DNA from: Pirellulales bacterium
GTDB lineage: Bacteria > Planctomycetota > Planctomycetia > Pirellulales > Lacipirellulaceae
Assembly: GCA_022448265.1 (NCBI GenBank)
Contig: JAKVCC010000019.1
Coordinates: 12,573-70,275, forward strand
Direction of reading: 5' to 3'
DNA: 57,703 nt
Part shown: positions 5,087 to 22,866 of the stretch, one piece after another
Position numbering within the stretch: the first letter of the stretch is position 1
Layout of the letters: the number at the start of each line of letters is the position of its first letter
The notes under the pieces: generated by a model
Databases searched by the model: none
Seen by the model: only the letters and a program-made list of their open reading frames with translations
What the model was told of the DNA's origin: nothing
Program-made: the position numbers and the translations under genes

Positions 5087-7020
<1,934 letters not shown>

Positions 7021-8214
7021 GTGCTGGAGCAAGACGGTGAGCTAGTGGATTTGAACCGGCATCTGCTTGACGTAGAACGGGCGGTGCGTGAGCGATACGG
7101 CTCGGCCGCTCTGGAAGCGGAGCCAGCCCTTTGCTGCCCTGTGGACTACGATGCTCAGTATCTGGACGCGATCCCCGCGGAGATCATTGAGCGTGACTAC
7201 GGCTGCGGAGATCCCTCTAAGCATGTCGCCCAGGGCGAAACCGTACTCGACTTGGGGAGCGGTGGAGGCAAGATCTGTTATATCGCAGCCCAAGTGGTAG
7301 GTGCGGCGGGAAAGGTCATTGGCGTTGATCGCAACGACCAAATGCTTGAACTGGCCCGCAAATACCAAACCCCGATCGGGGAAAAACTTGGCTACGCAAA
7401 TGTTGAGTTTCGCAAGGGAAGCATTCAAGACCTGGCTCTCAATCTGGAAACGTTTGAGGCCTATCTGTCCGAGAACCCCATCACCTCGACCGATGACTGG
7501 TTGCGCGCCGAGGCCTATGCCGACTCATTGCGTTCCAAGGAGCCCCTAGTGGCCAGCGACTCGGTCGATGTAGTCGTGTCGAACTGTGTGCTCAATCTGG
7601 TCAGCAAAGCTGATCGAAGCCATCTTTTTTCCGAAATATTCCGCGTTCTCAAGCGGGGTGGCCGTGCCGTGATCAGCGATATTGTGTGTGACGAGCCGGT
7701 CCCTGCGCACTTGCAAAACGATGCCCGGCTGTGGAGCGGCTGCATGAGTGGGGCCTTCATCGAACACGAACTTCTTCAGGCCTTTGCGCTGGCGCAGTTT
7801 TACGGGATCGAAATTCTCTCGCGACAGAAAGAAGCTTGGGCTACCGTCGAGGGAATCGAATTCCGTAGCGTGACGATTTGCGCATACAAGGGAAAAGAGG
7901 GCCCCTGCCTCGATCAAAAGCAGGCGGTTATCTACAACGGCCCGTGGGCCCAGGTTATGGACGACGATGGCCAGACCCTCTACCGGGGTCAGCGAATGGC
8001 CGTCTGCGGCAAGACCTATGAAATCTATAATCGTGAGCCGTACGCTCAGCAGATTACGCCGGTTCCGGCGGCCGAGTCGGTGCCGCTGTCCGAAGCCAAG
8101 GAGTTCGACTGCCGCCAGAACGCCGTTCGCCCTCCGAGTACCACCAAAGGGAGGGACTACCTAGTCACACAGCTCCCTGGTGACAGCTGCTGCGGTGACG
8201 TTGACTGCTGCTAA
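7021..8214 (+). CDS. ArsM-like arsenite S-adenosylmethionine methyltransferase (arsenosugar-type family)
   Basis: A 397-aa protein. I chose GTG 7021 because AAGGAG lies seven bases upstream; ATG 7000 and GTG 6943 lie in frame upstream but have no comparable site. A class I methyltransferase fold is evident, with motif I VLDLGSGGGK at residues 75-84 and the acidic VIGVDRND. Cysteines at places conserved in arsenosugar-pathway ArsM proteins are present: LCCP (38-39), DYGCG (62) and SNCVLNL. Also present are the downstream EGPC and AVCGKT segments and a C-terminus with DSCCGDVDCC. Family members methylate As(III). No arsR, arsB/acr3 or radical-SAM arsS gene is adjacent, so arsenic is inferred from the cysteines alone; another thiophilic substrate is possible. 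Confidence 0.65.
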   Translation: MLEQDGELVDLNRHLLDVERAVRERYGSAALEAEPALCCPVDYDAQYLDAIPAEIIERDYGCGDPSKHVAQGETVLDLGSGGGKICYIAAQVVGAAGKVIGVDRNDQMLELARKYQTPIGEKLGYANVEFRKGSIQDLALNLETFEAYLSENPITSTDDWLRAEAYADSLRSKEPLVASDSVDVVVSNCVLNLVSKADRSHLFSEIFRVLKRGGRAVISDIVCDEPVPAHLQNDARLWSGCMSGAFIEHELLQAFALAQFYGIEILSRQKEAWATVEGIEFRSVTICAYKGKEGPCLDQKQAVIYNGPWAQVMDDDGQTLYRGQRMAVCGKTYEIYNREPYAQQITPVPAAESVPLSEAKEFDCRQNAVRPPSTTKGRDYLVTQLPGDSCCGDVDCC

Positions 8215-8256: not shown

Positions 8257-8382
8257 ATACGGTATTCCCCGGACAATTCTGAGGCAGGCGCCGAGGAAGT
8301 GCACTGGCGGCGACTTCCCCGTCGACATGGCATAGGATAGCGTGGGGTTAGGCTCAAAGGCCCTTTTGAACATCAGGGCGAC

Positions 8383-9207
8383 ATGCGGAAATTTTGCCCG
8401 TACTTGCAAGACTACCTCCCCCAGAACTTAGCTATGTCGCTGCCCGTGATTTCCAGATCGTCTGCTGACCTAGTGTGCCGTAGGCTCCAGCGCGCTTTCA
8501 TTGCGTACTGCTGCCTTACATTTTGGGGAGCGCTGCCACCCGGAAGTATGGCCGCGGGCGAAGCAGAATCAATAGCTCTGTTTAACGGCCGGAATTTGGA
8601 GGGTTGGGTCCAGCGGGGCGGCAAGGCCCAATACAGTGTGGAAGGTGACACCATCGTGGGGACTTCGGTTCTTGATACACCCAACAGTTTCTTATGCACC
8701 GATCGCGAGTACGCCGACTTCATCCTGGAACTTGAGCTCAAGGTGGATGAGGGCCTCAACTCCGGCATCCAAATCCGTAGCCACTGCTTCGACCAACAGG
8801 TAACCGCCGCCTTTCAGGACGGTCAGGGAAAAGGGGTAACCAAGCAGATTCCTGCCGGCTGCGTCCATGGCTACCAAGTTGAAATCGACCCTACGGATCG
8901 CGCCTATTCCGGCGGCATCTACGACGAAGGCCGGCGCGGATGGCTCAACGACTTGAAGGGCGAGGAAAACCGGGCCGCACGCGAGGCCTTTCAGAGGGCC
9001 GGGTGGAACAAGTATCGAATCGAGGCGATCGGCAACTCGATTAAGACTTGGGTTAATGGCGTGCCGGCGGCGAATCTGACCGACGACATGGATGCCGCCG
9101 GATTCATCGGGCTCCAAGTACACGGCGTCGGCAATGCACAGGAAATGGTGGGCAAGCAGGTGCGGTGGCGCAAAATCCTTATCCGAGACTTGGCCTGCGC
9201 TGAGTGA
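8383..9207 (+). CDS. Secreted DUF1080 protein (3-keto-disaccharide hydrolase-like, LamG-type fold)
   Basis: A 274-aa protein. The first ~60 residues form an export signal, with hydrophobic core FIAYCCLTFWGALPPG before AAGEAES; ATG 8434 would give a shorter version of the same signal. The family motif FNGRNLEGW follows. The rest is a concanavalin-like beta-sandwich with LELKVDEGLNSGIQIRSH, HGYQVEIDP, GWNKYRIEAIGN and GFIGLQVHG. DUF1080 proteins are abundant in planctomycetes. Some characterised members cleave or modify 3-keto-glycosides, and others are associated with carbohydrate-degrading complexes. The enzymatic role here is not shown. It stands alone after the ArsM-like gene. Confidence 0.85.
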   Translation: MRKFCPYLQDYLPQNLAMSLPVISRSSADLVCRRLQRAFIAYCCLTFWGALPPGSMAAGEAESIALFNGRNLEGWVQRGGKAQYSVEGDTIVGTSVLDTPNSFLCTDREYADFILELELKVDEGLNSGIQIRSHCFDQQVTAAFQDGQGKGVTKQIPAGCVHGYQVEIDPTDRAYSGGIYDEGRRGWLNDLKGEENRAAREAFQRAGWNKYRIEAIGNSIKTWVNGVPAANLTDDMDAAGFIGLQVHGVGNAQEMVGKQVRWRKILIRDLACAE

Positions 9208-9440
9208 TTTCCGGTCACGCCCGGGGGAGGCGGCAGAGCACCGACAACAACTGGCCACATGATGGACACTGCGTCCCGTAGCGGAACAGCCACATCGCCA
9301 CACAGAGCCCTAACGCGATAGCCCGAAAACTTCATCCCCCTCTGCTGCGTTAAGCGGTAATTCTGGGTTACTCACCTATCATCACCCGAAAACTGCTCAA
9401 TTGGGGAGTATGCCACAAGCCAGGACGTCCTGACTACATC

Positions 9441-9965
9441 TCACTGTTTGGACGTTGGCCTCACTCTGGGTGTGCGGCCTATTTCACCTTCGAGCTTGAA
9501 GTCATACTCTCCTGGGGGAGCATTTTCCCGCGCTTCCACCGTCAGGCCTGAGCTGGCCGGGTTCTGGTACTTGAGCGGGATGAGCGGGATGTTTGGAGGC
9601 GGGAAGCCCCTGTAGTTCGGGTCAGTAACCCCGGGCGGGCGTTTCGACGAAACCACACCGACCATGTAGTGGCCGGGTGGCGCACCCTCCTTGTCCAGGG
9701 TTTTGAGCGAATAGTGCCCCGAAGCGTCGATCGCCCCGCGGCTATCGTACTCCGCCGCATTTCCCTTACTGGCGTCAGGGAGGAAAATGACGGTGCCCGT
9801 GGTAACCTCGTTGCCTTTCCACGTGATCTGGCCCTCCACCGGCACGGTAGGGCCCACCAGGTCTTCTCCGGCGCAGCCCGAGAGCAGCAGAGCCACTAGC
9901 GGCGCGCTGCACGCCGACAACAGCGCCGGCCGGGGGCCTCGCCGTGCAGCCATCATGCCAGGCAT
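9441..9965 (-). CDS. Lipoprotein paired with a DUF1559 protein (carboxypeptidase-regulatory-like)
   Basis: A 174-aa protein when started at ATG 9965, four bases after the upstream DUF1559 stop; the frame extends further upstream only through that gene. The signal peptide has core ALLSACSAPLVALLL and lipobox LLSGC. The mature part begins PTVPVEGQITWKGNEVTTG and continues with DASGHYSLKTL, GHYMVGVVSSKR and PPGEYDFKLEG, which is the beta-sandwich pattern of carboxypeptidase-regulatory-like or transthyretin-like domains. Small lipoproteins of this type commonly follow DUF1559 genes in planctomycetes. The function is unknown; an envelope location is likely. Confidence 0.8.
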   Translation of the reverse strand: MPGMMAARRGPRPALLSACSAPLVALLLSGCAGEDLVGPTVPVEGQITWKGNEVTTGTVIFLPDASKGNAAEYDSRGAIDASGHYSLKTLDKEGAPPGHYMVGVVSSKRPPGVTDPNYRGFPPPNIPLIPLKYQNPASSGLTVEARENAPPGEYDFKLEGEIGRTPRVRPTSKQ

Positions 9966-11246: not shown

Positions 11247-14200
11247 CTACTTGTTGAGCCGCCTTTGAGGATCGGCGCAGTTCTCTTCGACCAGGCAGCT
11301 ACTTACCCAGCCCAACCACTGGGCCGTTGGTCGCCCGTAGGGGCGGAACTTAACTTGCGTGCCCAAATCGTCGCGGTAGAGAAGTGCCCGGTGCTCGCCC
11401 AGGTGGCCGGCGGCGGGAGAATCGATAAAGCTTGTGGAGTCGCCGGCACTCATTTGCAGTGCCACCCGATAGTCGACCTCGCGCAGGGTGAGCCGATCCA
11501 GAAACCGGGTTAGGGTGTTGTAGGAGTCGCACCAAAGAAGCACATGCACGCCTACCGACGGACCCTCTCGCAACAGATTGCGAAACTGCTTAGCGATCGG
11601 CACCTGGTGGCCGTTGGTACCGCTGGCGTCAAACGACGAAAAGCTATAGTCGTCCTCCGTCAGGCGCAGCGCGCGGAATTGGGCCAAATCGTGTACGATC
11701 AAGAAATAGGGCGGATGCGTGGCGCCGGATGATTCGCTGCGGCGGGTCACCTCTTCGGCAAGGGCCGTAATGGTCGCCTCCGCAGAAGAGGGCTCCACCC
11801 GCTTGACCGTCTTCGGCAGCGCCGCGACGATTTTCTCCCAGGCTCCCTGGTCGGCTGACTCGGGTCTTGACCCATCCAGTACCGTGTAGCGGGCCTCGCC
11901 GGCGGCGCCCTGCGCGGCCAGCGCAACGAGCGCCGAGGCCAAGATTCCCAGTGCCAGCGGTTCGTCCTGTCCCACCACCAGTAAATGGTTTCCCCCTTGT
12001 CGGCGCAATGTCAGCTCCGTGGGCGGTTCGATCCGCACGGCGCTGCCCAGCCAAATGGTTGGCTCCGCCATGTCGTGGTTGCCGAAGCGCTCGACCGTCG
12101 AAACCAGCGCCTCGTTGGCGCTTGGGTCCGCCGGTACATTGCCTTCAAACACGATTGCCGGCTCGTGTGAGTCACCGCCGGCCGCATGCCGACTGCGAAT
12201 CTCGGCCAAATAGTGCTGCCGATCTTGGTTCGGGAGCCAGACAACCTGGAAGGGGCTGTTGCCCTCCAATAACCCATTCTGATCGTTGTAAATCGCCTCC
12301 CCGGGCCGGTTCAGCAGACGAGCGGCCGTGTTTTCGTCGCTCAGGATCAGGTGCGCATCGGCTTCGCTACACTCCAGCGCTATCCGCACCGCCATCTGTC
12401 CAATGGTGCTGCGTGCGAGCGAGTAAGCCCCAGCGAGCGTTTGTGAGCCCAACAGCACATGAATTCCAAACGCGCGGCCTTGCCGGACAAGACGATCCAG
12501 TAGCAGGGCCGCGTCCTGTGCCAACTTGTCGTCGGTCACAAATAACTCTTGAAATTCGTCAACGATCAGCAGCACGCGCGGTAGCCGCTGGTCGCCCGCA
12601 CTTCTTGCCCCAGCTAGGTCTTGGGCCCCCAGTCGGCGAAACAAGTCGCCCCGCTGGCGCAGTTCCTCGTCCAAACGTTCCAAGACGCTCACGCCAAATT
12701 CCCGCTCGCTCTCAATGGCGATCACTCGGGCATGTGGCAATTCGCCCGTCGCGTAGGCTTTGAATTCAACGCCCTTCTTGAAGTCGACCAGATAGAACTC
12801 GACTTCGTCAGGACTGTAATGCAAGGCCAGATTGGTGATCAGCGCATGCAACAACGTTGATTTTCCCGAGCCGGTTTTACCGGAAATCAGCGCGTGCTGC
12901 GCAGTGCCGCGTCCCAGCCGGAGCGTCTGCAGGTCGTTTGCCCCCGCGCACCCCACCGGTACCACCAATTCGCGGGCAGTGCTGCCGGCCCACATGTTGC
13001 CATTTTGCGGGGCCACCACCGAGAATGGCACCTCCACCCGGCTGGCCAAACGCGACTCCTGTCCTGTGGCACGGAGCAATTCTCCCAGTTGCTGGCGGGG
13101 TGGCAGGCGGTCCCAATAAAGGGGCAGCTTTTCGTAAAGCGGATAGTTCCAACGCAGTCGATCTTCCACCCACTCCAGATGGACCATGCCACCGAGCAGT
13201 TCGTCCAAATCAAGGTCGCTCGGCAGCTTGCGCGATCCGTCAATGCTCAGTAGCGTGTAGACGCCGCAACGTGGCCCCATCTTGGCGATCGTATTCAGCC
13301 TGCGCAAGGCAGCGTCGCTGAGTCCGACCGGCGCGTTGGCCACCACCAAAACCTGGTAGGGCTCGGCAACTTCGCCGGCCTGCGCGTTGTAATCATGAAT
13401 CGACTCGAAGTCGTTGCGCAGATACTTTTGCAGCACCTTTTCCATGTGGTCCGACAGGAGCATCAATCGCTCGTCGATCTTGCGGGAGTCGGTCCAAATT
13501 TGTCCGCCAACTAATTGCTCGTCGTAATCGGCCAGTTGCATGAAGGTGGCAAAATTCTCTCCTAGAGCTGACGGGTCGATAATGGTGAACCGCAACTTCC
13601 CGGCCGGCATCACTGTGAGAAAACGCACCATCATGGCCCGCAGCAGCTCACACGCCACCGCCTGCCCCCTACCACTGGCGGTGATGGCTAGCCCCGGCAA
13701 TTCATCCATCGCCATTAGCGCGGGAAGCTGGATTTCAGTTTGGGCGGGCACCAAACGCGAATCGGCCGAAATGCCGTGTTTCACCGCCTGCAGCGGCAAT
13801 TGGCAATGACCAAACTGGATTGCCGGCGGGGGTTTGGCAGGGCGTTGCCAATCCTCCCAGGAGGTGGTCGACCAGTCGGGAAAATATTGATTGCATGCCG
13901 CCTCCATGGCAGCCAGCTCCTTGCTAATCGCTTGAAAACCGTTCTGCCAGGCCGCGGCCAGCGACTGCCAACTAGTTTCGTGTGTCTCTTGGGCAGCGGT
14001 CTTTCGTGCTTCGTAGCGCGCCAGATGCTCCTGTTCGGCAAGCTGCCGGTCCTGAGACAACAGATCCAGGAGGGGCGGATAGTGTTTGTCAGCTGCGGCC
14101 TGAGCACGCTGGCATTCGTCCGTCGCTTCTTGGAGACCTACATCTCGCTCCGATTCGGCCTGCCTCAACTCGGCTTGCAAGGTGGCATTGTTTTGCTGAA

Positions 14201-15215
14201 CCGCAGCATCACGGGCCCGACCGGCAGTAGCCAATGCGTTGTGCTTCCGAAGGTTAATATCTTCGGCCGCTTTTCGGCTCAACACCTCGGCCTCCGTTTG
14301 CGCCTCCTGCTCAAGAGATCGTGACCGCGCGAGTGTCGCAAGAATTTGCGCGTACTGATGAAGCGACTCATTCTGAGCTCTCTTACCGAGAAGCCAGTAC
14401 GCCACTACCGTCACTAAGGTTCCCACCCCGAATGCTGCCACGAGCCACGCCCCCGGCGACCAACCTGTTGGCAAACCAGTCAATACGGCACTCACCACGC
14501 AAGCCAGTAGCCACCAGCCCACGAATCGCAGACCTTCCAACATCAGGCTCGGCAGCCGCTGCGCTTGCAATCGGAGTACCTCTTGATGCAACTGATTGAG
14601 ACAGATTTGCTGACACTCTTCTGCCGTCGGCTTCACCTCAACCGAATCGTCGGGTGCAGGCCCGGGTACTGCATTCTCGGGTGCTGGATCCACAAGCTCG
14701 GCAGCTTGGGCCAAGCGGCGCATGGCCATGAGCGTGCTGGCATCGCGCTGCAGTCCATCAACTTGCAGGCGGCGAGCATGAAAGCGGCGGCCCGCTGCGT
14801 CGAGCATTTGCTGCGGACTATCCTTGGCGGCATCGAAGACAGCCAGCGTCTGCCACTCGCTTTCCTTCTTTTTTCGTTCAATCGCCAAAGCGGTTTGCTT
14901 GAACGCTAAATCAGCGCGAAGGCACCAGCGGTCATAATCCGCCTGAAGCTGTTTTTTGGCCAGGCGACTCTTCTCCGCGGCAACATTCTTTGCTGCAGCG
15001 TACTGATTCTCCAAATCGCGACGGTCATGTGCCATATCCCCCGCCAATCGCTGCAGCGACACCTCCCGGCTATCCTCAGCCCCCTTCAGTTCCGATTGCA
15101 AAGTCGCGGCAACGGCTGTCTCCTCTTGCGCGCGCGCGTCGGCCAGCTCCTGCAGTTTCTGCATGAGTTCCAATTGACGACGGGTGGAGAGTCGCACGTC
15201 TTGCAAAGGGACCAA
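11247..15215 (-). CDS. EccC/EssC-like FtsK/SpoIIIE ATPase of a type VII-like locus
   Basis: A 1322-aa protein. It starts at TTG 15215 with GGAG four bases upstream; no in-frame ATG is available nearby. Residues ~12-170 form a long charged coiled coil. Two membrane helices lie at ~230-250 and 255-276, and a second coiled coil at ~283-440. A RecA-like module without Walker motifs follows at ~495-700. The central FtsK/SpoIIIE module carries Walker A GKTGSGKST at 779-787 and Walker B RVLLIVDEFQE with Asp886/Glu887. A third, degenerate module starts near 1077, where GQDEPLALG replaces Walker A. Two N-terminal helices plus three serial ATPase modules match EccC/EssC motors of type VII secretion rather than FtsK; there is no gamma DNA-reading domain and no FHA domain. 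The upstream genes encode WXG100-like proteins, which supports a secretion motor. Confidence 0.75.
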   Translation of the reverse strand: MVPLQDVRLSTRRQLELMQKLQELADARAQEETAVAATLQSELKGAEDSREVSLQRLAGDMAHDRRDLENQYAAAKNVAAEKSRLAKKQLQADYDRWCLRADLAFKQTALAIERKKKESEWQTLAVFDAAKDSPQQMLDAAGRRFHARRLQVDGLQRDASTLMAMRRLAQAAELVDPAPENAVPGPAPDDSVEVKPTAEECQQICLNQLHQEVLRLQAQRLPSLMLEGLRFVGWWLLACVVSAVLTGLPTGWSPGAWLVAAFGVGTLVTVVAYWLLGKRAQNESLHQYAQILATLARSRSLEQEAQTEAEVLSRKAAEDINLRKHNALATAGRARDAAVQQNNATLQAELRQAESERDVGLQEATDECQRAQAAADKHYPPLLDLLSQDRQLAEQEHLARYEARKTAAQETHETSWQSLAAAWQNGFQAISKELAAMEAACNQYFPDWSTTSWEDWQRPAKPPPAIQFGHCQLPLQAVKHGISADSRLVPAQTEIQLPALMAMDELPGLAITASGRGQAVACELLRAMMVRFLTVMPAGKLRFTIIDPSALGENFATFMQLADYDEQLVGGQIWTDSRKIDERLMLLSDHMEKVLQKYLRNDFESIHDYNAQAGEVAEPYQVLVVANAPVGLSDAALRRLNTIAKMGPRCGVYTLLSIDGSRKLPSDLDLDELLGGMVHLEWVEDRLRWNYPLYEKLPLYWDRLPPRQQLGELLRATGQESRLASRVEVPFSVVAPQNGNMWAGSTARELVVPVGCAGANDLQTLRLGRGTAQHALISGKTGSGKSTLLHALITNLALHYSPDEVEFYLVDFKKGVEFKAYATGELPHARVIAIESEREFGVSVLERLDEELRQRGDLFRRLGAQDLAGARSAGDQRLPRVLLIVDEFQELFVTDDKLAQDAALLLDRLVRQGRAFGIHVLLGSQTLAGAYSLARSTIGQMAVRIALECSEADAHLILSDENTAARLLNRPGEAIYNDQNGLLEGNSPFQVVWLPNQDRQHYLAEIRSRHAAGGDSHEPAIVFEGNVPADPSANEALVSTVERFGNHDMAEPTIWLGSAVRIEPPTELTLRRQGGNHLLVVGQDEPLALGILASALVALAAQGAAGEARYTVLDGSRPESADQGAWEKIVAALPKTVKRVEPSSAEATITALAEEVTRRSESSGATHPPYFLIVHDLAQFRALRLTEDDYSFSSFDASGTNGHQVPIAKQFRNLLREGPSVGVHVLLWCDSYNTLTRFLDRLTLREVDYRVALQMSAGDSTSFIDSPAAGHLGEHRALLYRDDLGTQVKFRPYGRPTAQWLGWVSSCLVEENCADPQRRLNK

Positions 15216-16743: not shown

Positions 16744-19700
16744 CTAGACCCCGGACAACCCCGCCGCAGCCTTGGAAGCCGACTCCAACAAGCCCTGCTT
16801 TGCCCGCTGGTACGCTGGATCAATGGCGCTCAACTCTTCGGCTACGGCCTCAACCGCGGTGCGGATCTGCTCTTCAGTGTGGCTGCTGGTGATAAAGAAT
16901 CGTAGCCGGGCCGCGCTTTCCTCTACTGCCGGATAGAGGATTGGCTGAACATTGATGCCCCGTTCAAAAAGTGCATGTGACAGTTGCACTGCGCGCTCTG
17001 AATTACCCGTGATGACCGGCACGATGGGCGTACCCCGGCTCAGGCCTGTATTAAGTCCCACATTCTTAGCAAGTCGTAAAAACAGGCGTGCGTTCTCCGA
17101 AAGCCTAGCCACGCGATCTGGCTCCTCTTGCAGGAGCACAATGGCAGCTAATGCCGCAGCAGCATTCGACGGACTGAGGCCGACACTGTAGACAAACCCC
17201 GGCGCCGTGAACTTTAAGTATTCGACCATCGCGTGCGAACCGGCGATATAGCCGCCACAACTACCAAACGACTTGCTCAGCGTACCCATCCAAAGATCAA
17301 CATCGCGCGGATTCACATCCAAAAACTCAGACATTCCCCGGCCGTGCAATCCCATCGTGCCAATCGAATGGGCCTCATCTATCATCAAATAAGCTTTATG
17401 CCGCTGCTTGATATCAACGTACTTGGGCAGGTCGGCGTGATCCCCATCCATGCTGTAAACGCCTTCAATGACGATCAGCACGCGACGGTATTCGTGCCGC
17501 ACTTCGCTGAGAATGCGATTGCACTCCTGCCAGTCGTTGTGCGGAAAGGGACGTCGGCGCGCCCCGGACAGCATAGCCCCCTGCAAGATACTGTTGTGAC
17601 AGAGGCTGTCGTGCAGGATCAAATCTCCCGAGCCAAACAAGTGCCCAATCGTCGTCTCGTTGGTCGAGTGTCCGCCCACAAAAACGATGGCGTCTTCTGT
17701 TCCGATAAACTCGGCAATGCTCCGCTCGAGCTGAACGTGAACCGTTTTCTCACCCGAGACCAAACGGCTCGCGGAAACGCTCGTGCCAAATTGACTTACC
17801 GCTTCGCGCGCCGCCTCAACGACACTAGGCTCCCCCGACATTCCAAGATAGTTATAGCTGCAAAAATTCACATACTCTCGGCCACCAATAGTAGTCCGAT
17901 CGCTGGTAATTCCTTCGTGAACCATGAAGAAAGGACTTGTCATACCGTCCTTGCGGGTGACTTCCAGATTCTTCTGGAGTCGCAGGTATTCGGAAGACTT
18001 GGTGAAGATAAAGTCCTCCTCAGGCAAAATAAATTCGCTGGGACGGGCCGTTCGTTTTTTGGCCTCGCTGCCCAGATAATTCTCGATCGCCTCGACCACT
18101 TCGCCGCAGGTCTCCATCGAAGGCAAGACATGCTCTGGAAAGCGTCCGCCAAAGGTTTCTTCGAGCGCAGCAATAATCTCGATGCGCTCGAGCGAATCAA
18201 GTCCTAACTCAACAATATTCGTGTTCCAATCGAGCTGCCCCACGCGCTCGCGACCAATCTCGCGGACCTGCTCGTAAACGATTTCGGCAATTTCAGCAGC
18301 GCGGCCCGACAGCTCGGGCGGACCAGGCTCGGAGGGCGCCACTGCGCCGTTGAACTGGGCCAAAGCTGGCGCACTTTCTCCCGGGATGCCCCCGCCATCC
18401 GCCGAAGCCAGCAGATCACCTTCTTCAACCCAAGTTTCCATCTCCGGCTTGTCACGCTTCTTGCGGGCCGACAAGGCGACATCGACCGCACCAGTTTCCG
18501 CCGACCAGGAAGCCCGCGTGACCAGCGTGCCTGCCAGATAGCCATCGCGACATGCATGACGCTGGATCTTGCCACTGGATGTCTTGGGGATACTGCGCGG
18601 CTTGATGAGCACGATAGCTCCCACTGCCAATTCCAGATCGGCAGCCACCTTTTTTCGGATCGCCTCAATAATCGTCTCGTAATCAAGATCTCGCCGCCGC
18701 GAGGTCTCCTGCACGATGACCAATTTCTCGGCGTCTTCGTCCCCGACAATCACCGCGGCGCCCGCGCCGGTTTCCAGATGCTCATGTGCGGACTGTACGG
18801 CGTGTTCGATATCTTGCGGATAGTAATTCACGCCGCGCAAGATGATTAAGTCTTTGAGACGGCCGGTAACGAACAATTCGCCCTTGGACAAGAAGCCCAA
18901 GTCTCCGGTGCGCAAAAACGGCCCACGGCCATCACTGAGTCGGGCTTGAAAGATTTGCTCGGAAAGCTCTTCGCGCTTCCAATAGCCATTGGCCACGCTC
19001 GGGCCCGAGATCCAAATCTCGCCAACGTGATCGTCGTCAAAGGGCTCACACGTCTCCGGGTCGGCAATCACGATTTGCTGATCCAGCAGGTTTCCGCCAC
19101 TGCCCACGAGTCGGCGGGAGTCCTCTGCCCCCTGCTCCGTTTCCCGCGCCCGGTTTTGTTCGAGCGCAGAAATCTCAAACGAACTGACCTCCGGAGGCGA
19201 TTGCTTATATCCACCCGTCACGATCAGCGTAGCCTCGGCCAAGCCGTAGCAGGGATAAAACGCATCGCGGCGAAAACCACATTCGGCAAAGGCCTCGCTA
19301 AAACGATCCATGGTGTCGGCACGAACCGGCTCGGCGCCGTTAAAGGCCAGTGCCCAGTGACTAAGATCGAGCGTGGTTTTCTGCTCAGGTGTAATCTTTT
19401 CTACACACAAATCATAGGCAAAGTTGGGACCGCCTGAAACGGTGGCGCTGCATTTCGTCATCGCCTGCAGCCAGCGCACGGGTTTCTGCAAAAAATGAGT
19501 CGGCGAAAAGAGTGTATTGGACTTGCCCATATAGAGCGGTTGCAAAATTCCGCCAATCAGCCCCATGTCATGATAGAGGGGCAACCAAAAACACCCGCTC
19601 CCGGATCGCGTGTGCTCAAAGGCATAGGCAATCATCGCTGAGTTGTGCATCAGGTTGGCGTGCGAGAGCATGACCCCTTTGGGGGTGCCGGTCGAGCCGG

Positions 19701-20235
19701 ACGTGTACTGCAAGAAGGCCAAGGTTTCGCCGTGGACCTCGGGACGCCGCCAGCTATCGGCAAGATCGCTGTCCCACTGATCAGTCGACCGCCAACGAAT
19801 CTGCTGGAGCGACGGCGTATCGCCGATCATCGTCCGCACACGTTCCAGGACGTTCAGTGTGGTGAGCGCGATCTTGGCCTCGGCATCGTTGGCAATCGAA
19901 TCGATCCGCGCCATGTTGCGGTTCCGCCGTGGCGGGTAAGCCGGCACGGCCGTCACTCCGGCATACAGGCAGCCGAAGAAGGCTGCCACGAACTCCAGGC
20001 CTGACGGATACAGCAGCAGTGCCCGCTCGCCTTCAAAGCCCATGGCCTGCAACGACGCAGCAATAGCCCGGGCCTTGCGGTCCAAGTCGGCATAGGTCCA
20101 TTCGATGGCCTGACTTTCGCCATCGACAAGAAACCGGAATCCGATGTCCTCACCCTGATGCAAAGCCCGATGCTGCAAGAGTTCGATGAGATTCGATGGC
20201 CCAAAAAAAGAGCCCGGCAGGTGGTCTAGGTGCAC
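16744..20235 (-). CDS. Trifunctional fatty-acyl-AMP ligase / acyl carrier protein / alpha-oxoamine synthase
   Basis: A 1163-aa protein starting at GTG 20235. Residues ~1-575 are an ANL-family fatty-acyl-AMP ligase, with P-loop YTSGSTGTPKG (177-187), YGLAE, LRTGDLGFL and catalytic Lys556 in SSGKIQR. Residues ~640-722 are an acyl carrier domain with phosphopantetheine Ser681 in LGLDSLERIE. Residues ~745-1145 are a PLP fold-type I alpha-oxoamine synthase, with FCSYNYLGMS, DEAHSIG (Asp953) and the Schiff-base Lys988 in TLSKSFGSCGG. The ligase should activate a free fatty acid and load it on the fused carrier. The synthase should then condense it with an amino acid, releasing CO2 and a 2-amino-3-ketone, as serine palmitoyltransferase or BioF does. 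The amino acid used and the product are unknown. No ketoreductase or ceramide synthase gene is adjacent. Confidence 0.85.
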   Translation of the reverse strand: MHLDHLPGSFFGPSNLIELLQHRALHQGEDIGFRFLVDGESQAIEWTYADLDRKARAIAASLQAMGFEGERALLLYPSGLEFVAAFFGCLYAGVTAVPAYPPRRNRNMARIDSIANDAEAKIALTTLNVLERVRTMIGDTPSLQQIRWRSTDQWDSDLADSWRRPEVHGETLAFLQYTSGSTGTPKGVMLSHANLMHNSAMIAYAFEHTRSGSGCFWLPLYHDMGLIGGILQPLYMGKSNTLFSPTHFLQKPVRWLQAMTKCSATVSGGPNFAYDLCVEKITPEQKTTLDLSHWALAFNGAEPVRADTMDRFSEAFAECGFRRDAFYPCYGLAEATLIVTGGYKQSPPEVSSFEISALEQNRARETEQGAEDSRRLVGSGGNLLDQQIVIADPETCEPFDDDHVGEIWISGPSVANGYWKREELSEQIFQARLSDGRGPFLRTGDLGFLSKGELFVTGRLKDLIILRGVNYYPQDIEHAVQSAHEHLETGAGAAVIVGDEDAEKLVIVQETSRRRDLDYETIIEAIRKKVAADLELAVGAIVLIKPRSIPKTSSGKIQRHACRDGYLAGTLVTRASWSAETGAVDVALSARKKRDKPEMETWVEEGDLLASADGGGIPGESAPALAQFNGAVAPSEPGPPELSGRAAEIAEIVYEQVREIGRERVGQLDWNTNIVELGLDSLERIEIIAALEETFGGRFPEHVLPSMETCGEVVEAIENYLGSEAKKRTARPSEFILPEEDFIFTKSSEYLRLQKNLEVTRKDGMTSPFFMVHEGITSDRTTIGGREYVNFCSYNYLGMSGEPSVVEAAREAVSQFGTSVSASRLVSGEKTVHVQLERSIAEFIGTEDAIVFVGGHSTNETTIGHLFGSGDLILHDSLCHNSILQGAMLSGARRRPFPHNDWQECNRILSEVRHEYRRVLIVIEGVYSMDGDHADLPKYVDIKQRHKAYLMIDEAHSIGTMGLHGRGMSEFLDVNPRDVDLWMGTLSKSFGSCGGYIAGSHAMVEYLKFTAPGFVYSVGLSPSNAAAALAAIVLLQEEPDRVARLSENARLFLRLAKNVGLNTGLSRGTPIVPVITGNSERAVQLSHALFERGINVQPILYPAVEESAARLRFFITSSHTEEQIRTAVEAVAEELSAIDPAYQRAKQGLLESASKAAAGLSGV

Positions 20236-21240: not shown

Positions 21241-22866
21241 TTAGTAAATCACGTCGAAGCCAAAGTTTGCGCCATTGATGAAAATATCTTGGTTGCCATG
21301 GCCCGGCAGCAGGCCCATGTCGGGCAGTGTCCAATTGACCATTTGCGAGGCGCGGGTGATGTTGTCAACAAAGGTCGCCGTGTATCCCAAGCGAGCGGCG
21401 ATCGAACCGGTCACCTGGTAACTCAAGTCTGCCCGCAATTCTGCCACCGGTGAGAAATCATTCTCCTGGCGGCCGGTGGCAAAATAGGTCCGTTGCATGA
21501 TGAGTGATGAATTCAAACCACCCGGGACTAACTGCTCGCCGATTCCGCCGACTTGCTCCAGATCCTGCACGTTATAGCCGAAGAGGAAGCGGCCATCGAC
21601 ACCCAGATTCCACCTGCCGCGTTGGGAACTCCATTTAGCACGAACTTGCGGACCCACGATTTGGTTCTCTGCACTCGTGTCGGCGAATGCATGACCTAGA
21701 AAACTGCTGTCCCCCGAGAAGCCAAACGAATCTCGCAAACGGAGGAAACGTACGCCGTAGGCGACATCCAAATTATTTCCCTGACGCTTGGCCATCTTGT
21801 GAGTGTTTGTCAGGCGATGCGTTTGCATGATCTCAATACCCTGCGTCTCGCTCACATTGCGGACGGACAATGTATCGAAGCGAATGTTGAAAAAGTACAA
21901 GTCGCCAAAATCGACATCGCCAGTAATCGGATTAAAGCCAGCGATCCCATCGCCGTCCACGTCGTCAACGATGCCATCCGCCAATTTAGTTGTCGACGCG
22001 GGATCTGCGTTAGGGTTTTCAATAAATTGGGTACTGGGAATTGGAGTAAAGGGGAAATTGGGGTTGGGAAGTAGCACCTCAACCGGAATAAAGGAATCGG
22101 CGGGGTTGCTATTTCTCGCTTGAGGCCCACTCGTCACTGTATCTGGAATGGTGGGATTTGCGCCTTGTTCGAAGTAGTAATCCCGCCAGCCCAAAAAAAA
22201 TCCCGAGCCTGCTGGTACTGCAAAATTCACATGCACACTACCGAAGCCCCCGCCGTAGTTTGTGCCCCCAAGCTCATCGCCACTGACAGGTTGTGTAGCG
22301 GTAGCAAAGCCGTAGTTAGCAGTGCTAACCGCTTCCGGACCGTCTAAGATACCAACCGACCAGCCAGTGCTGCCGTTGAAATGGCCCAGTTCATAACGCT
22401 CACCCCATGCGAATTTAGCGTTGGGAGGCGCTGACTGCACACCGTTAATAATATCGTACCGAGGGGGGACGCCGCCGGGCGCGGTCACACCTGCCGGACC
22501 GCCCGCTTGGTCCGCCTGGTCCCCGGTGCCTCCAATAATCTGTGGTGCAAGCGGGTCGGCTGTCTCGATGGGGGGATTACCACCGGGGTTATACTCCCAA
22601 ACCTGCTCGGAAGGATAAATCAGGCCACGTTGCCCCAGCGTCACGCGCTCGCCAGTAAATGCCCAGCTCAACTTGTCATAGTGAAAGAAGTATCCACAGT
22701 CTTTGCCAATCGGACGATTATCGAAGTCGAAATCGACGGGCGCAAATAACTGGAGATCATGCGCCGGTGAATTGACCCATTCATTGACTTGACCCCGAGC
22801 GCCGTTCGGTGTCATCAAAAGCAGTAATCCGGTAGCGAGCCACGTACTTATCTTGTGAACGGTCAT
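21241..22866 (-). CDS. BBP7-family outer-membrane beta-barrel protein
   Basis: A 541-aa protein. The signal peptide (residues 1-25, core TWLATGLLLLMTPNGARG) is followed by a mature start at about QVNEWVNSP. The sequence has the amphipathic, Gly/Asn/aromatic-rich pattern of a barrel. A paralogue-typical middle section has FYFHY-like and W-rich strands, GFNPITGDVDFGDLYFFNIRFD and GIEIMQTHRLTNTHKM. The C-terminus ends in an aromatic strand, FGFDVIY. BBP7 barrels are numerous in planctomycetes, where they are predicted outer-membrane proteins without known cargo. It is transcribed alone, convergent with the 62-aa protein gene. Confidence 0.85.
   Translation of the reverse strand: MTVHKISTWLATGLLLLMTPNGARGQVNEWVNSPAHDLQLFAPVDFDFDNRPIGKDCGYFFHYDKLSWAFTGERVTLGQRGLIYPSEQVWEYNPGGNPPIETADPLAPQIIGGTGDQADQAGGPAGVTAPGGVPPRYDIINGVQSAPPNAKFAWGERYELGHFNGSTGWSVGILDGPEAVSTANYGFATATQPVSGDELGGTNYGGGFGSVHVNFAVPAGSGFFLGWRDYYFEQGANPTIPDTVTSGPQARNSNPADSFIPVEVLLPNPNFPFTPIPSTQFIENPNADPASTTKLADGIVDDVDGDGIAGFNPITGDVDFGDLYFFNIRFDTLSVRNVSETQGIEIMQTHRLTNTHKMAKRQGNNLDVAYGVRFLRLRDSFGFSGDSSFLGHAFADTSAENQIVGPQVRAKWSSQRGRWNLGVDGRFLFGYNVQDLEQVGGIGEQLVPGGLNSSLIMQRTYFATGRQENDFSPVAELRADLSYQVTGSIAARLGYTATFVDNITRASQMVNWTLPDMGLLPGHGNQDIFINGANFGFDVIY

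What the first reader, a model, noticed from the sequence alone, without database searches (positions are those of the whole stretch)
16744..20235. One polypeptide carrying fatty-acyl-AMP ligase, carrier protein and alpha-oxoamine synthase
Seen: three complete modules in one 1163-aa chain with all key residues (Lys556 of the ligase, Ser681 of the carrier, Lys988 and Asp953 of the PLP synthase). Known: in Caulobacter-type bacterial sphingolipid synthesis a dedicated acyl-ACP synthetase, a dedicated carrier and serine palmitoyltransferase are separate proteins. Inferred: this is the same chemistry fused into a self-loading unit that makes a 3-keto long-chain amino compound, either a sphingoid base or a new lipid head group.
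Basis: partly seen in the sequence, partly recalled or inferred. Interest (0 to 1): 0.8.

Follow-up and report, generated by a model that had tools for sequence, protein, structure and literature searches.

The report
Self-loading sphingolipid synthase in planctomycetes
One bacterial protein joins the three parts needed to start making sphingolipids (a fatty-acid activator, a carrier and a serine-condensing enzyme), and the same genome carries likely genes for the next two steps, so this group of planctomycetes probably makes these normally eukaryote-type lipids in an unusual way; none of it has been tested at the bench.

Summary
In detail: 16744-20235, minus strand, is one 1163-aa ORF with fatty-acyl-AMP ligase (FAAL), carrier and alpha-oxoamine synthase (AOS) domains and the key residues named. 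The AOS groups with AOSs that sit beside type I PKSs (apparent relatives of P. fluorescens SgaB, a purified serine palmitoyltransferase), and in two trees that clade is sister to the eukaryotic SPT subunit LCB2. S987, before the catalytic Lys, is Ser in all 33 clade rows, as in bacterial SPTs; it is Gly in BioF, KBL and HemA. The genome has, on another contig, one N-acyltransferase homologous over full length to E. coli YghO/CerS, head to head with a CerR-like epimerase. In 76 good-quality genomes of the order (hand count) acyltransferase and AOS are both present in 62, both absent in 9, acyltransferase only in 5, AOS only in 0. Best reading: a self-loading serine palmitoyltransferase that makes 3-ketosphinganine for dihydroceramide. 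The architecture was tabulated in 2013 (product unknown) and planctomycete Spt-like proteins in 2024, so it is a new variant of a known kind. Substrate, product and downstream assignments are inferred; no SPT model reaches its cut-off.

The parts
16744..20235 (-). complete gene, 1163 aa, FAAL-ACP-AOS fusion (proposed self-loading serine palmitoyltransferase)
18436..20235 (-). residues 1-600: fatty acyl-AMP ligase domain; K556 at 18568-18570
   Evidence: best PDB hits are FAALs (7r7e 618 bits, FadD32, FadD23)
18061..18315 (-). residues 641-725: acyl carrier domain; phosphopantetheine Ser681 at 18193-18195
   Evidence: S681 invariant in 17 aligned sequences
16816..18030 (-). residues 736-1140: PLP alpha-oxoamine synthase domain; D953 17377-17379, S987 17275-17277, K988 17272-17274

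Best explanation
The protein is a self-loading serine palmitoyltransferase. Step 1: the FAAL domain activates a free long-chain fatty acid with ATP to acyl-AMP and passes it to the phosphopantetheine on S681 of its own carrier domain. Step 2: the AOS domain binds L-serine as a PLP aldimine on K988 and condenses it, with loss of CO2, with the carrier-bound acyl chain to 3-ketosphinganine. Step 3: elsewhere in the genome (G000 contig 45) a YghO/CerS-type N-acyltransferase and a head-to-head CerR-like epimerase/reductase complete dihydroceramide. Shown by computation: the domains and residues, the clade, the homologues, their co-occurrence and the adjacency of the last two. Inferred: the fatty acid, serine as the amino acid, loading in cis, the function of the two contig-45 genes, and the final lipid.
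For: Domains and residues. AOS 53-57% identical to AOSs beside a type I PKS in clusters with an SDR in Pseudomonas, Paraburkholderia and Caballeronia; in a cluster of that kind PfSgaB was purified and shown to use L-serine almost exclusively (PMC12134224 sections 8 and 9). Clade sister to LCB2 (98/92 and 100/94). S987 is Ser in 33 of 33 clade rows and in three bacterial SPTs, Thr in LCB2, Gly in BioF/KBL/HemA, Ala in CapA; the equivalent Ser242 of SPT 3A2B bonds the serine hydroxyl in a docked model (PMC3870968). G000 GNAT vs YghO 35% over 374 aa, E 1e-73; epimerase vs CerR 29%, E 3e-25; FAAL vs AasR 34%, E 1e-82. In L132 the fusion, an ABC exporter and homologues of this GNAT and epimerase lie in one cluster; in L051, within the order, a GNAT paralogue (35%) is the next gene after the fusion. 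Co-occurrence 62 both, 9 neither, 5 GNAT only, 0 AOS only in 76 good genomes (hand count). The GNAT sits beside Sphingobacterium-type SPTs in three other planctomycetes.
Against: No SPT model reaches its cut-off on this protein (NF047599 291-295 of 500 bits, NF047600 306 of 640); the highest AOS model is bioF, 359 of 426. In G000 the gene is not linked to the GNAT/epimerase pair, and of 109 fetched loci with this AOS (>=40%; flanks from almost none to 10 kb) only two, L132 and L051, show a GNAT near it. G000 has no clear RkpH/KDSR-type reductase. CerR similarity is weak, within a large superfamily, and the epimerase co-occurs less well (67 of 97 genomes, four of them without the GNAT). Outside the order, 8 of 8 genomes (59-97% complete) with this AOS type at >=45% identity lack the GNAT. 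G001 and G043 have the GNAT but no fusion. In the second tree the branch that unites all SPT-like rows has only 87/66. PfSgaB itself was in no collection searched.
Confidence: 0.68

Rival explanations
1. The protein makes a free sphingoid-like amino-ketone or amino-alcohol that is exported as a natural product or used as a lipid carrier/anchor for a surface polysaccharide, as proposed for the rkp-1 region, and is not turned into ceramide.
For: Five close relatives on plasmids lie in clusters with capsule or polysaccharide-export genes and an SDR, three of them with an LTA-synthase-like gene; rkp-1 is described as making a specific lipid carrier (PMC4881576, passage). In outgroups the fusion stands near an ABC ATPase and/or an ABC-2 permease (L125, L129, L132), or a split FAAL + carrier-AOS pair stands beside an RkpH-like SDR (L121). 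Eight of 8 genomes outside the order with this AOS type lack the N-acyltransferase.
Against: In the 21 neighbourhoods read within the order I saw no capsule cluster, by gene families and not by full annotation; there the gene is tied to the N-acyltransferase (62 both, 9 neither, 0 AOS only in 76 genomes; hand count).
Confidence: 0.18
2. Same condensation with another amino acid: alanine or glycine (1-deoxysphingoid bases) or cysteate (sulfonolipid base).
For: Sequence alone does not fix the amino acid; 1-deoxysphingolipids are reported from euxinic Black Sea water, where 138 Planctomycetota MAGs hold Spt-like proteins (PMC11334938, abstract and passages).
Against: S987 is Ser as in SPTs; Gly in BioF/KBL/HemA and Ala in CapA. 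CapA is only 26% identical and lies in another clade. PfSgaB, from the same kind of cluster as the nearest relatives, prefers serine.
Confidence: 0.1
3. A housekeeping-type BioF, KBL or HemA with fused loading domains.
For: Highest-scoring AOS model is bioF; pairwise identities to BioF, KBL, HemA and bacterial SPT are all about 31-33%; AU test against the grouping is only just under 0.05.
Against: Separated from BioF/KBL/HemA by 99/95 support, and window clade + LCB2 hold together without them in both trees. G000 has a separate 449-aa AOS with Gly at the S987 position.
Confidence: 0.03

Closest known systems
Pseudomonas fluorescens SgaAB(C), PKS-derived sphinganine pathway (PMC12134224)
   Same: AOS apparently of the same type (cluster organisation; 53-57% identity to AOSs of like clusters on plasmids, SgaB itself not compared); carrier-bound acyl donor; proposed 3-ketosphinganine product
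   Different: There an iterative PKS builds the chain; here a FAAL loads a ready-made fatty acid and all three parts are one chain; no KDSR-type reductase was found in this genome, which instead has CerS/CerR-like genes
Rhodobacterial dihydroceramide pathway: AasR, AcpR, SPT, CerR, CerS (Caulobacter CC_1165, 1163, 1162, 1164, 1154; E. coli BL21 ECD_02851, 02853, 02854, 02852, 02850)
   Same: Dedicated acyl-ACP synthetase, dedicated carrier and AOS; homologues of CerS and (weakly) CerR in the genome
   Different: Three proteins fused into one; AOS from another clade than the Rhodobacterial SPTs; fusion unlinked to CerS/CerR in this genome
Sinorhizobium meliloti rkp-1 region (RkpA, RkpG, RkpH; gene names recalled, the record bears none)
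   Same: The AOS there is 49-50% identical to the window's AOS domain
   Different: No FAAL seen in the locus; a 2,502-aa neighbour in its place; role described as a lipid carrier for K-antigen export (PMC4881576)
A-CP-PLP2 protein of Blastopirellula marina (A3ZWL3) in the 2013 survey PMC3870968
   Same: Same architecture; the B. marina DSM 3645 fusion (L118) is in the window's clade, best segment 55% identical. That L118 is A3ZWL3 itself is likely but was not checked
   Different: The survey gives no product or pathway in the passages read; it names SPT as the closest CoA-family relative of the whole group
Eukaryotic SPT subunit LCB2/SPTLC2
   Same: Sister clade in both trees; GT(F/L)(T/S)KSFG(S/A) round the catalytic Lys
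   Different: 36% identity; heteromeric membrane complex that uses acyl-CoA (recalled)

Membership tests
Fatty acyl-AMP ligase (FAAL) | Closer to FAALs than to acyl-CoA ligases | tested here: met
   Top PDB hits are FAALs (7r7e 618 bits, 3kxw, FadD32, FadD23, FadD28); after one PKS/NRPS model, fatty-acyl-AMP ligase models lead over CoA-ligase models, none over its curated cut-off
Fatty acyl-AMP ligase (FAAL) | Makes acyl-AMP and loads a carrier, not CoA | not testable with these tools
   needs an enzyme assay
Alpha-oxoamine synthase | PLP Lys, Asp, stacking His and substrate Arg | tested here: met
   K988, D953, H880, H956, R1112
Serine palmitoyltransferase (activity class) | Not in the BioF/KBL/HemA group; SPT-type residue before the Lys | tested here: met
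   AU p 0.044 is marginal
Serine palmitoyltransferase (NCBIfam NF047599, NF047600, NF047603) | Score over the curated cut-off | tested here: not met
   291/500, 306/640, 233/670 bits (NF047599 294.5); so not filed under these equivalogs
Serine palmitoyltransferase (activity class) | Condenses L-serine with a long acyl thioester | not testable with these tools
   inferred from the SgaB-type cluster
AOS clade of PKS/capsule clusters (SgaB/RkpG-like) | Groups with AOSs of such clusters to the exclusion of other AOSs | tested here: met
   100/99, 99/99; SgaB itself not in the trees
Rhodobacterial-type dihydroceramide pathway | Acyl-ACP synthetase and dedicated carrier | tested here: met
   fused FAAL and ACP; FAAL 34% to AasR; function untested
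Rhodobacterial-type dihydroceramide pathway | CerS N-acyltransferase | tested here: met
   one full-length YghO homologue, 35%, E 1e-73; function untested
Rhodobacterial-type dihydroceramide pathway | CerR reductase | tested here: inconclusive
   29%, E 3e-25, beside the CerS homologue, but a large superfamily; also 133 bits to HpnA, cut-off 368
Rhodobacterial-type dihydroceramide pathway | SPT of the Rhodobacterial clade | tested here: not met
   AOS in a different, well-supported clade
BioF / KBL / HemA | Groups with these; Gly before the catalytic Lys | tested here: not met

The most novel reading that the evidence does not exclude
Carrier-dependent AOSs of this clade are the bacterial sister group of the eukaryotic SPT catalytic subunit: eukaryotic sphingolipid synthesis would then trace to a lineage that takes acyl chains from a carrier protein (FAAL-loaded or PKS-built), and Pirellulales would still use it, in a self-loading form, to make their own ceramides.
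Probability: 0.2. Interest if true: 0.85.

Novelty: new variant of a known kind. Interest (0 to 1): 0.6.

Why it matters
If right, most sampled members of a planctomycete order make sphingolipids from a single protein that activates, carries and condenses the fatty acid, a compact system for making sphingoid bases in E. coli. It would link two lines of work kept apart so far: PKS-linked SPTs and the Caulobacter-type pathway. It would also make it directly testable whether Pirellulales contain ceramides, for which none of my ten search listings showed a measurement (open-licence papers only, some listings cut).

Tried and rejected
Ideas rejected. (1) A gene cluster round the fusion: 20 relatives plus the window were compared by gene families; the shared neighbours (family of the window's BBP7-like porin, an FtsK/EccC-like ATPase) look like shared descent. 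A later direct search found one lipid-type neighbour that I had first missed, the GNAT paralogue in L051. (2) An RkpH/KDSR reductase in G000: best SDR 33%, without the (F/Y)PPDTxTPQ motif of the four reference SDRs. (3) Domain swaps in G083 and G093: first thought from 33-35% AOS identity, withdrawn because they fall inside the clade as long-branched members. (4) SPT-family scan of the own genome: no match over the cut-off. (5) A fold of the contig-45 acyltransferase from one sequence: mean pLDDT 38, useless, not searched further. (6) The test whether all fusions are one clade did not finish. (7) NCBIfam gave no family for the acyltransferase and the PDB no meaningful hit. (8) Passages of PMC11631085, PMC10896814, PMC3908369, PMC4245539 and PMC12493201 gave nothing on this fusion.

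Rows dropped: for the second tree nine rows of the first were left out (two long or odd ones, seven to thin out) and ten added. One search printed nothing because of a faulty pattern of mine and was redone. L094 was never analysed.
Full report
WHAT IS THERE. The ORF 16744-20235 lies on the minus strand, starts with GTG and encodes 1163 aa without a stop. Pfam finds AMP-binding 37-419, a DIP2-like AMP domain 462-574, PP-binding 664-716 and Aminotran_1_2 787-1131. The best PDB relatives of the first part are FAALs (7r7e, 618 bits); those of the last part are KBL/BioF-like, LCB2 and SPT enzymes at almost equal scores (233-219 bits), so similarity alone does not decide the function.

WHERE IT OCCURS. 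The window lies in a 3.64-Mb planctomycete genome, G000 (97% complete). In 97 genomes (itself and relatives, all in one order) 76 hold an AOS of this type at E<=1e-90, mostly inside ORFs of about 1,120-1,330 aa. A scan of named genomes places the fusion in Pirellulales and kin (Blastopirellula marina DSM 3645, Pirellula, Thermoguttaceae, Rhodopirellula MAGs), two MAGs labelled Phycisphaerales/Phycisphaeraceae and one labelled Desulfobulbaceae; in a Pseudanabaenales MAG (L121) FAAL and carrier-AOS are separate neighbouring genes, and in Limnothrix and Bacteroidetes MAGs (L133, L135) the architecture carries an AOS outside the clade. The scan kept the best 80 of at least 585 places, many of them FAAL only, and MAG labels can be wrong. 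In an even sample of 294 genomes of the phylum, 25 match at E<=1e-100, and single matches over the whole length occur only in members of the order (G000, G056, G058, G092).

WHAT THE AOS IS. Against plasmids the AOS finds relatives at 50-57% identity, while listed hits annotated as KBL, BioF or HemA reach 28-37%. I read eight such loci. In four the AOS gene follows a type I PKS, in one it is the end of a PKS; in S. meliloti its neighbour is a 2,502-aa protein annotated as an SDR oxidoreductase (the match with the rkp-1 region and the names RkpA/G/H are recalled); one is a 1,607-aa Streptomyces protein; one record has no annotation. Five of the eight also hold an SDR and capsule or polysaccharide-export genes. 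The RkpH-like SDR beside the L121 pair has 3-ketodihydrosphingosine reductase TSC10 as its best PDB hit, 99 bits, with other SDRs close behind at 98.

PUBLISHED ANCHOR. PMC12134224 (abstract, sections 8 and 9 and passages read): in P. fluorescens MYb115 an iterative PKS (SgaA) and an AOS (SgaB) make sphinganines; purified SgaB condenses acyl-CoAs with L-serine, almost exclusively over alanine and glycine; a KDSR-like SDR lies nearby; homologous clusters are commonest in Burkholderia. SgaB was in no collection I could search. I infer that the AOSs of L082 (Pseudomonas plasmid), L086 and L088 (Burkholderiales) are its homologues from the organisation: in L082 PKS, AOS and SDR locus tags have the same spacing (RS26445/26440/26415 against RS19805/19800/19775). 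The window AOS is 56-57% identical to L082's and 31-32% to canonical bacterial SPTs.

TREES. A 48-row maximum-likelihood tree puts the window in a 33-row clade (100/99) of fusions, PKS-AOSs, RkpG-like AOSs and a second planctomycete architecture; its sister is human SPTLC2 + Arabidopsis LCB2a (98/92), and KBL/BioF/HemA are split off at 99/95. AU tests: all SPTs as one clade p = 0.018; window clade together with BioF/HemA/KBL p = 0.044, a marginal rejection. A second tree with changed sampling gives LCB2 + clade 100/94 and the clade alone 99/99, but only 87/66 for the branch that unites all SPT-like rows. In the first tree fusions and PKS-AOSs are intermixed (five changes of the fusion label; two forced by starred branches), which suggests that the AOS has been exchanged between the two kinds of loader.

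RESIDUES. Position 987, just before the PLP lysine, is Ser in 33 of 33 clade rows and in three bacterial SPTs, Thr in both LCB2 rows, Gly in BioF, KBL, HemA and the genome's other AOS, and Ala in CapA and two CapA-like rows; the Thermus AOS and two unassigned rows also have Ser. It aligns with Ser242 of SPT 3A2B, which a docking model lets bond the serine hydroxyl (PMC3870968, passages). This favours serine; it does not prove it.

DOWNSTREAM GENES. In one planctomycete contig (L132) the fusion is followed by an ABC ATPase (by its sequence, not scanned), an ABC-2 permease, a gene with a weak UDP-GlcNAc-2-epimerase match below cut-off, a GNAT and, on the other strand, an NAD epimerase. G000 has exactly one homologue of that GNAT (48%, E 5e-120), on contig 45, head to head with a homologue of the epimerase (41%). 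PMC9386255 (introduction and passages) names the E. coli BL21(DE3) genes aasR, epi, acpR, spt and aca (yghO); I read that locus. G000's GNAT is 35% identical to YghO over 374 aa (E 1e-73), its epimerase 29% to CerR (E 3e-25), the window FAAL 34% to AasR (E 1e-82), the window AOS 32% to that SPT. PMC11324152 and PMC11087976 (passages) describe CerS and CerR as the last two steps in Caulobacter and differ on or discuss their order. For G000 the order is unknown.

LINKAGE. Of 109 fetched loci with this AOS at >=40% (151 searched; flanks from almost none to 10 kb), two show a GNAT homologue near it: L132, with the epimerase, and L051 of the window's order, where a 35% paralogue is the next gene after the fusion (also seen as G069:C41). 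In G000 and the other loci it is unlinked or out of reach.

CO-OCCURRENCE. Same 97 genomes: GNAT in 81, AOS in 76: both 74, AOS only 2 (G007, G034, 87% and 86% complete), GNAT only 7, neither 14; counting fragments and the two divergent fusions, 79/2/2/14. The Fisher p-values (4e-10, 5e-13) ignore kinship. The 14 co-absences fall in seven genera of five families plus one lone member of an eighth genus. In the 76 good genomes (>=90% complete, <=5% contaminated), counted by hand: 62 both, 9 neither, 5 GNAT only, 0 AOS only. Of the five, G083 and G093 carry a divergent fusion, G080 a FAAL fragment of 475 aa; G043 has a second GNAT beside another AOS, 39% to Sphingobacterium SPT, whose place in the tree is open; G001 is unexplained. 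The epimerase is less tightly tied: 67 of 97 genomes at E<=1e-45, four of them without GNAT; it lies within 500 bp of the GNAT in 32 of the 63 genomes with both, in four families.

OUTSIDE THE ORDER. The GNAT occurs in 106 of 294 phylum genomes, five of them in the order. In G211, G282 and G381 it is next to an AOS that groups with Sphingobacterium SPT (95/86), which supports the CerS reading. Against a universal link, 8 of 8 genomes outside the order with the window's AOS type (>=45% identity; 59-97% complete) lack the GNAT at E<=1e-30: there the AOS probably serves another route, as the rival reading says.

MECHANISM. Most likely: free fatty acid + ATP to acyl-AMP (FAAL), to acyl-S-ACP in cis (S681), to 3-ketosphinganine with L-serine (AOS, K988), then N-acylation and reduction by the contig-45 pair. 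Fusion would channel the chain. Only domains, residues, clade, homologues and co-occurrence are shown; chemistry and product are inferred.

NOVELTY. The architecture is in print: PMC3870968 lists Blastopirellula marina A3ZWL3 and Microscilla marina A1ZVW4 as A-CP-PLP2, AOS, product '?', and calls SPT the most closely related enzyme of the group (passages). PMC11334938 counts 138 Planctomycetota MAGs with Spt-like proteins (passages). None of ten full-text search listings (open-licence PMC only; some searches showed 20 of 71, 20 of 2,268, 15 of 269 and 15 of 55 papers) pointed to a paper that assigns the fusion to sphingolipid synthesis. Kiss 1997 and Stankeviciute 2022 were not held and bioRxiv was not searched.

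Noticed in passing
G000 contig 34, 96802-98526 (L002:1456-3633): A second FAAL, with a carrier-like GMDSL stretch near its C-terminus (725 aa), is listed at 44-51% identity to the window FAAL in many genomes of the order, also in some without the fusion; role unknown.
   Followed up: partly
L064, L065, L067 (G147, G185, G122; one family; G218/L066 looks alike): An independently built AMP-binding-carrier-AOS protein of about 1,090-1,140 aa: its AOS is in the window's clade but its AMP-binding domain is only 22-23% identical to the window's FAAL or gives no hit; Pfam run on L064 and L067 only.
   Followed up: partly
window 21241-22866 and 20-kb neighbourhoods L037-L056: The gene family of the window's BBP7-like porin lies near the fusion in 13 of 21 loci, also in other families of the order; the copy number of BBP7 per genome was not controlled for.
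   Followed up: partly
L129:7412-8356 and 8369-9484: In a MAG labelled Desulfobulbaceae the fusion is followed by a radical SAM/SPASM protein and an ABC-2 permease.
   Followed up: partly
L245:6365-10000 (G327): A 1211-aa ORF with a Sphingobacterium-type SPT domain (41%); the rest of the ORF was not identified.
   Followed up: no
L133:9949-15985: Limnothrix MAG: FAAL-carrier-AOS with an AOS outside the window's clade, then an RkpH-like SDR and a second FAAL.
   Followed up: partly
window 11247-15215: A 1322-aa FtsK/SpoIIIE ATPase, nearest to type VII secretion EccC models but far below their cut-offs (112 of 509 bits), lies near the fusion in 10 of 21 loci, all in the window's family.
   Followed up: no
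window 6943-8214: ArsM-type arsenite methyltransferase, 334 bits to the arsinothricin ArsM model, below its cut-off of 500.
   Followed up: no
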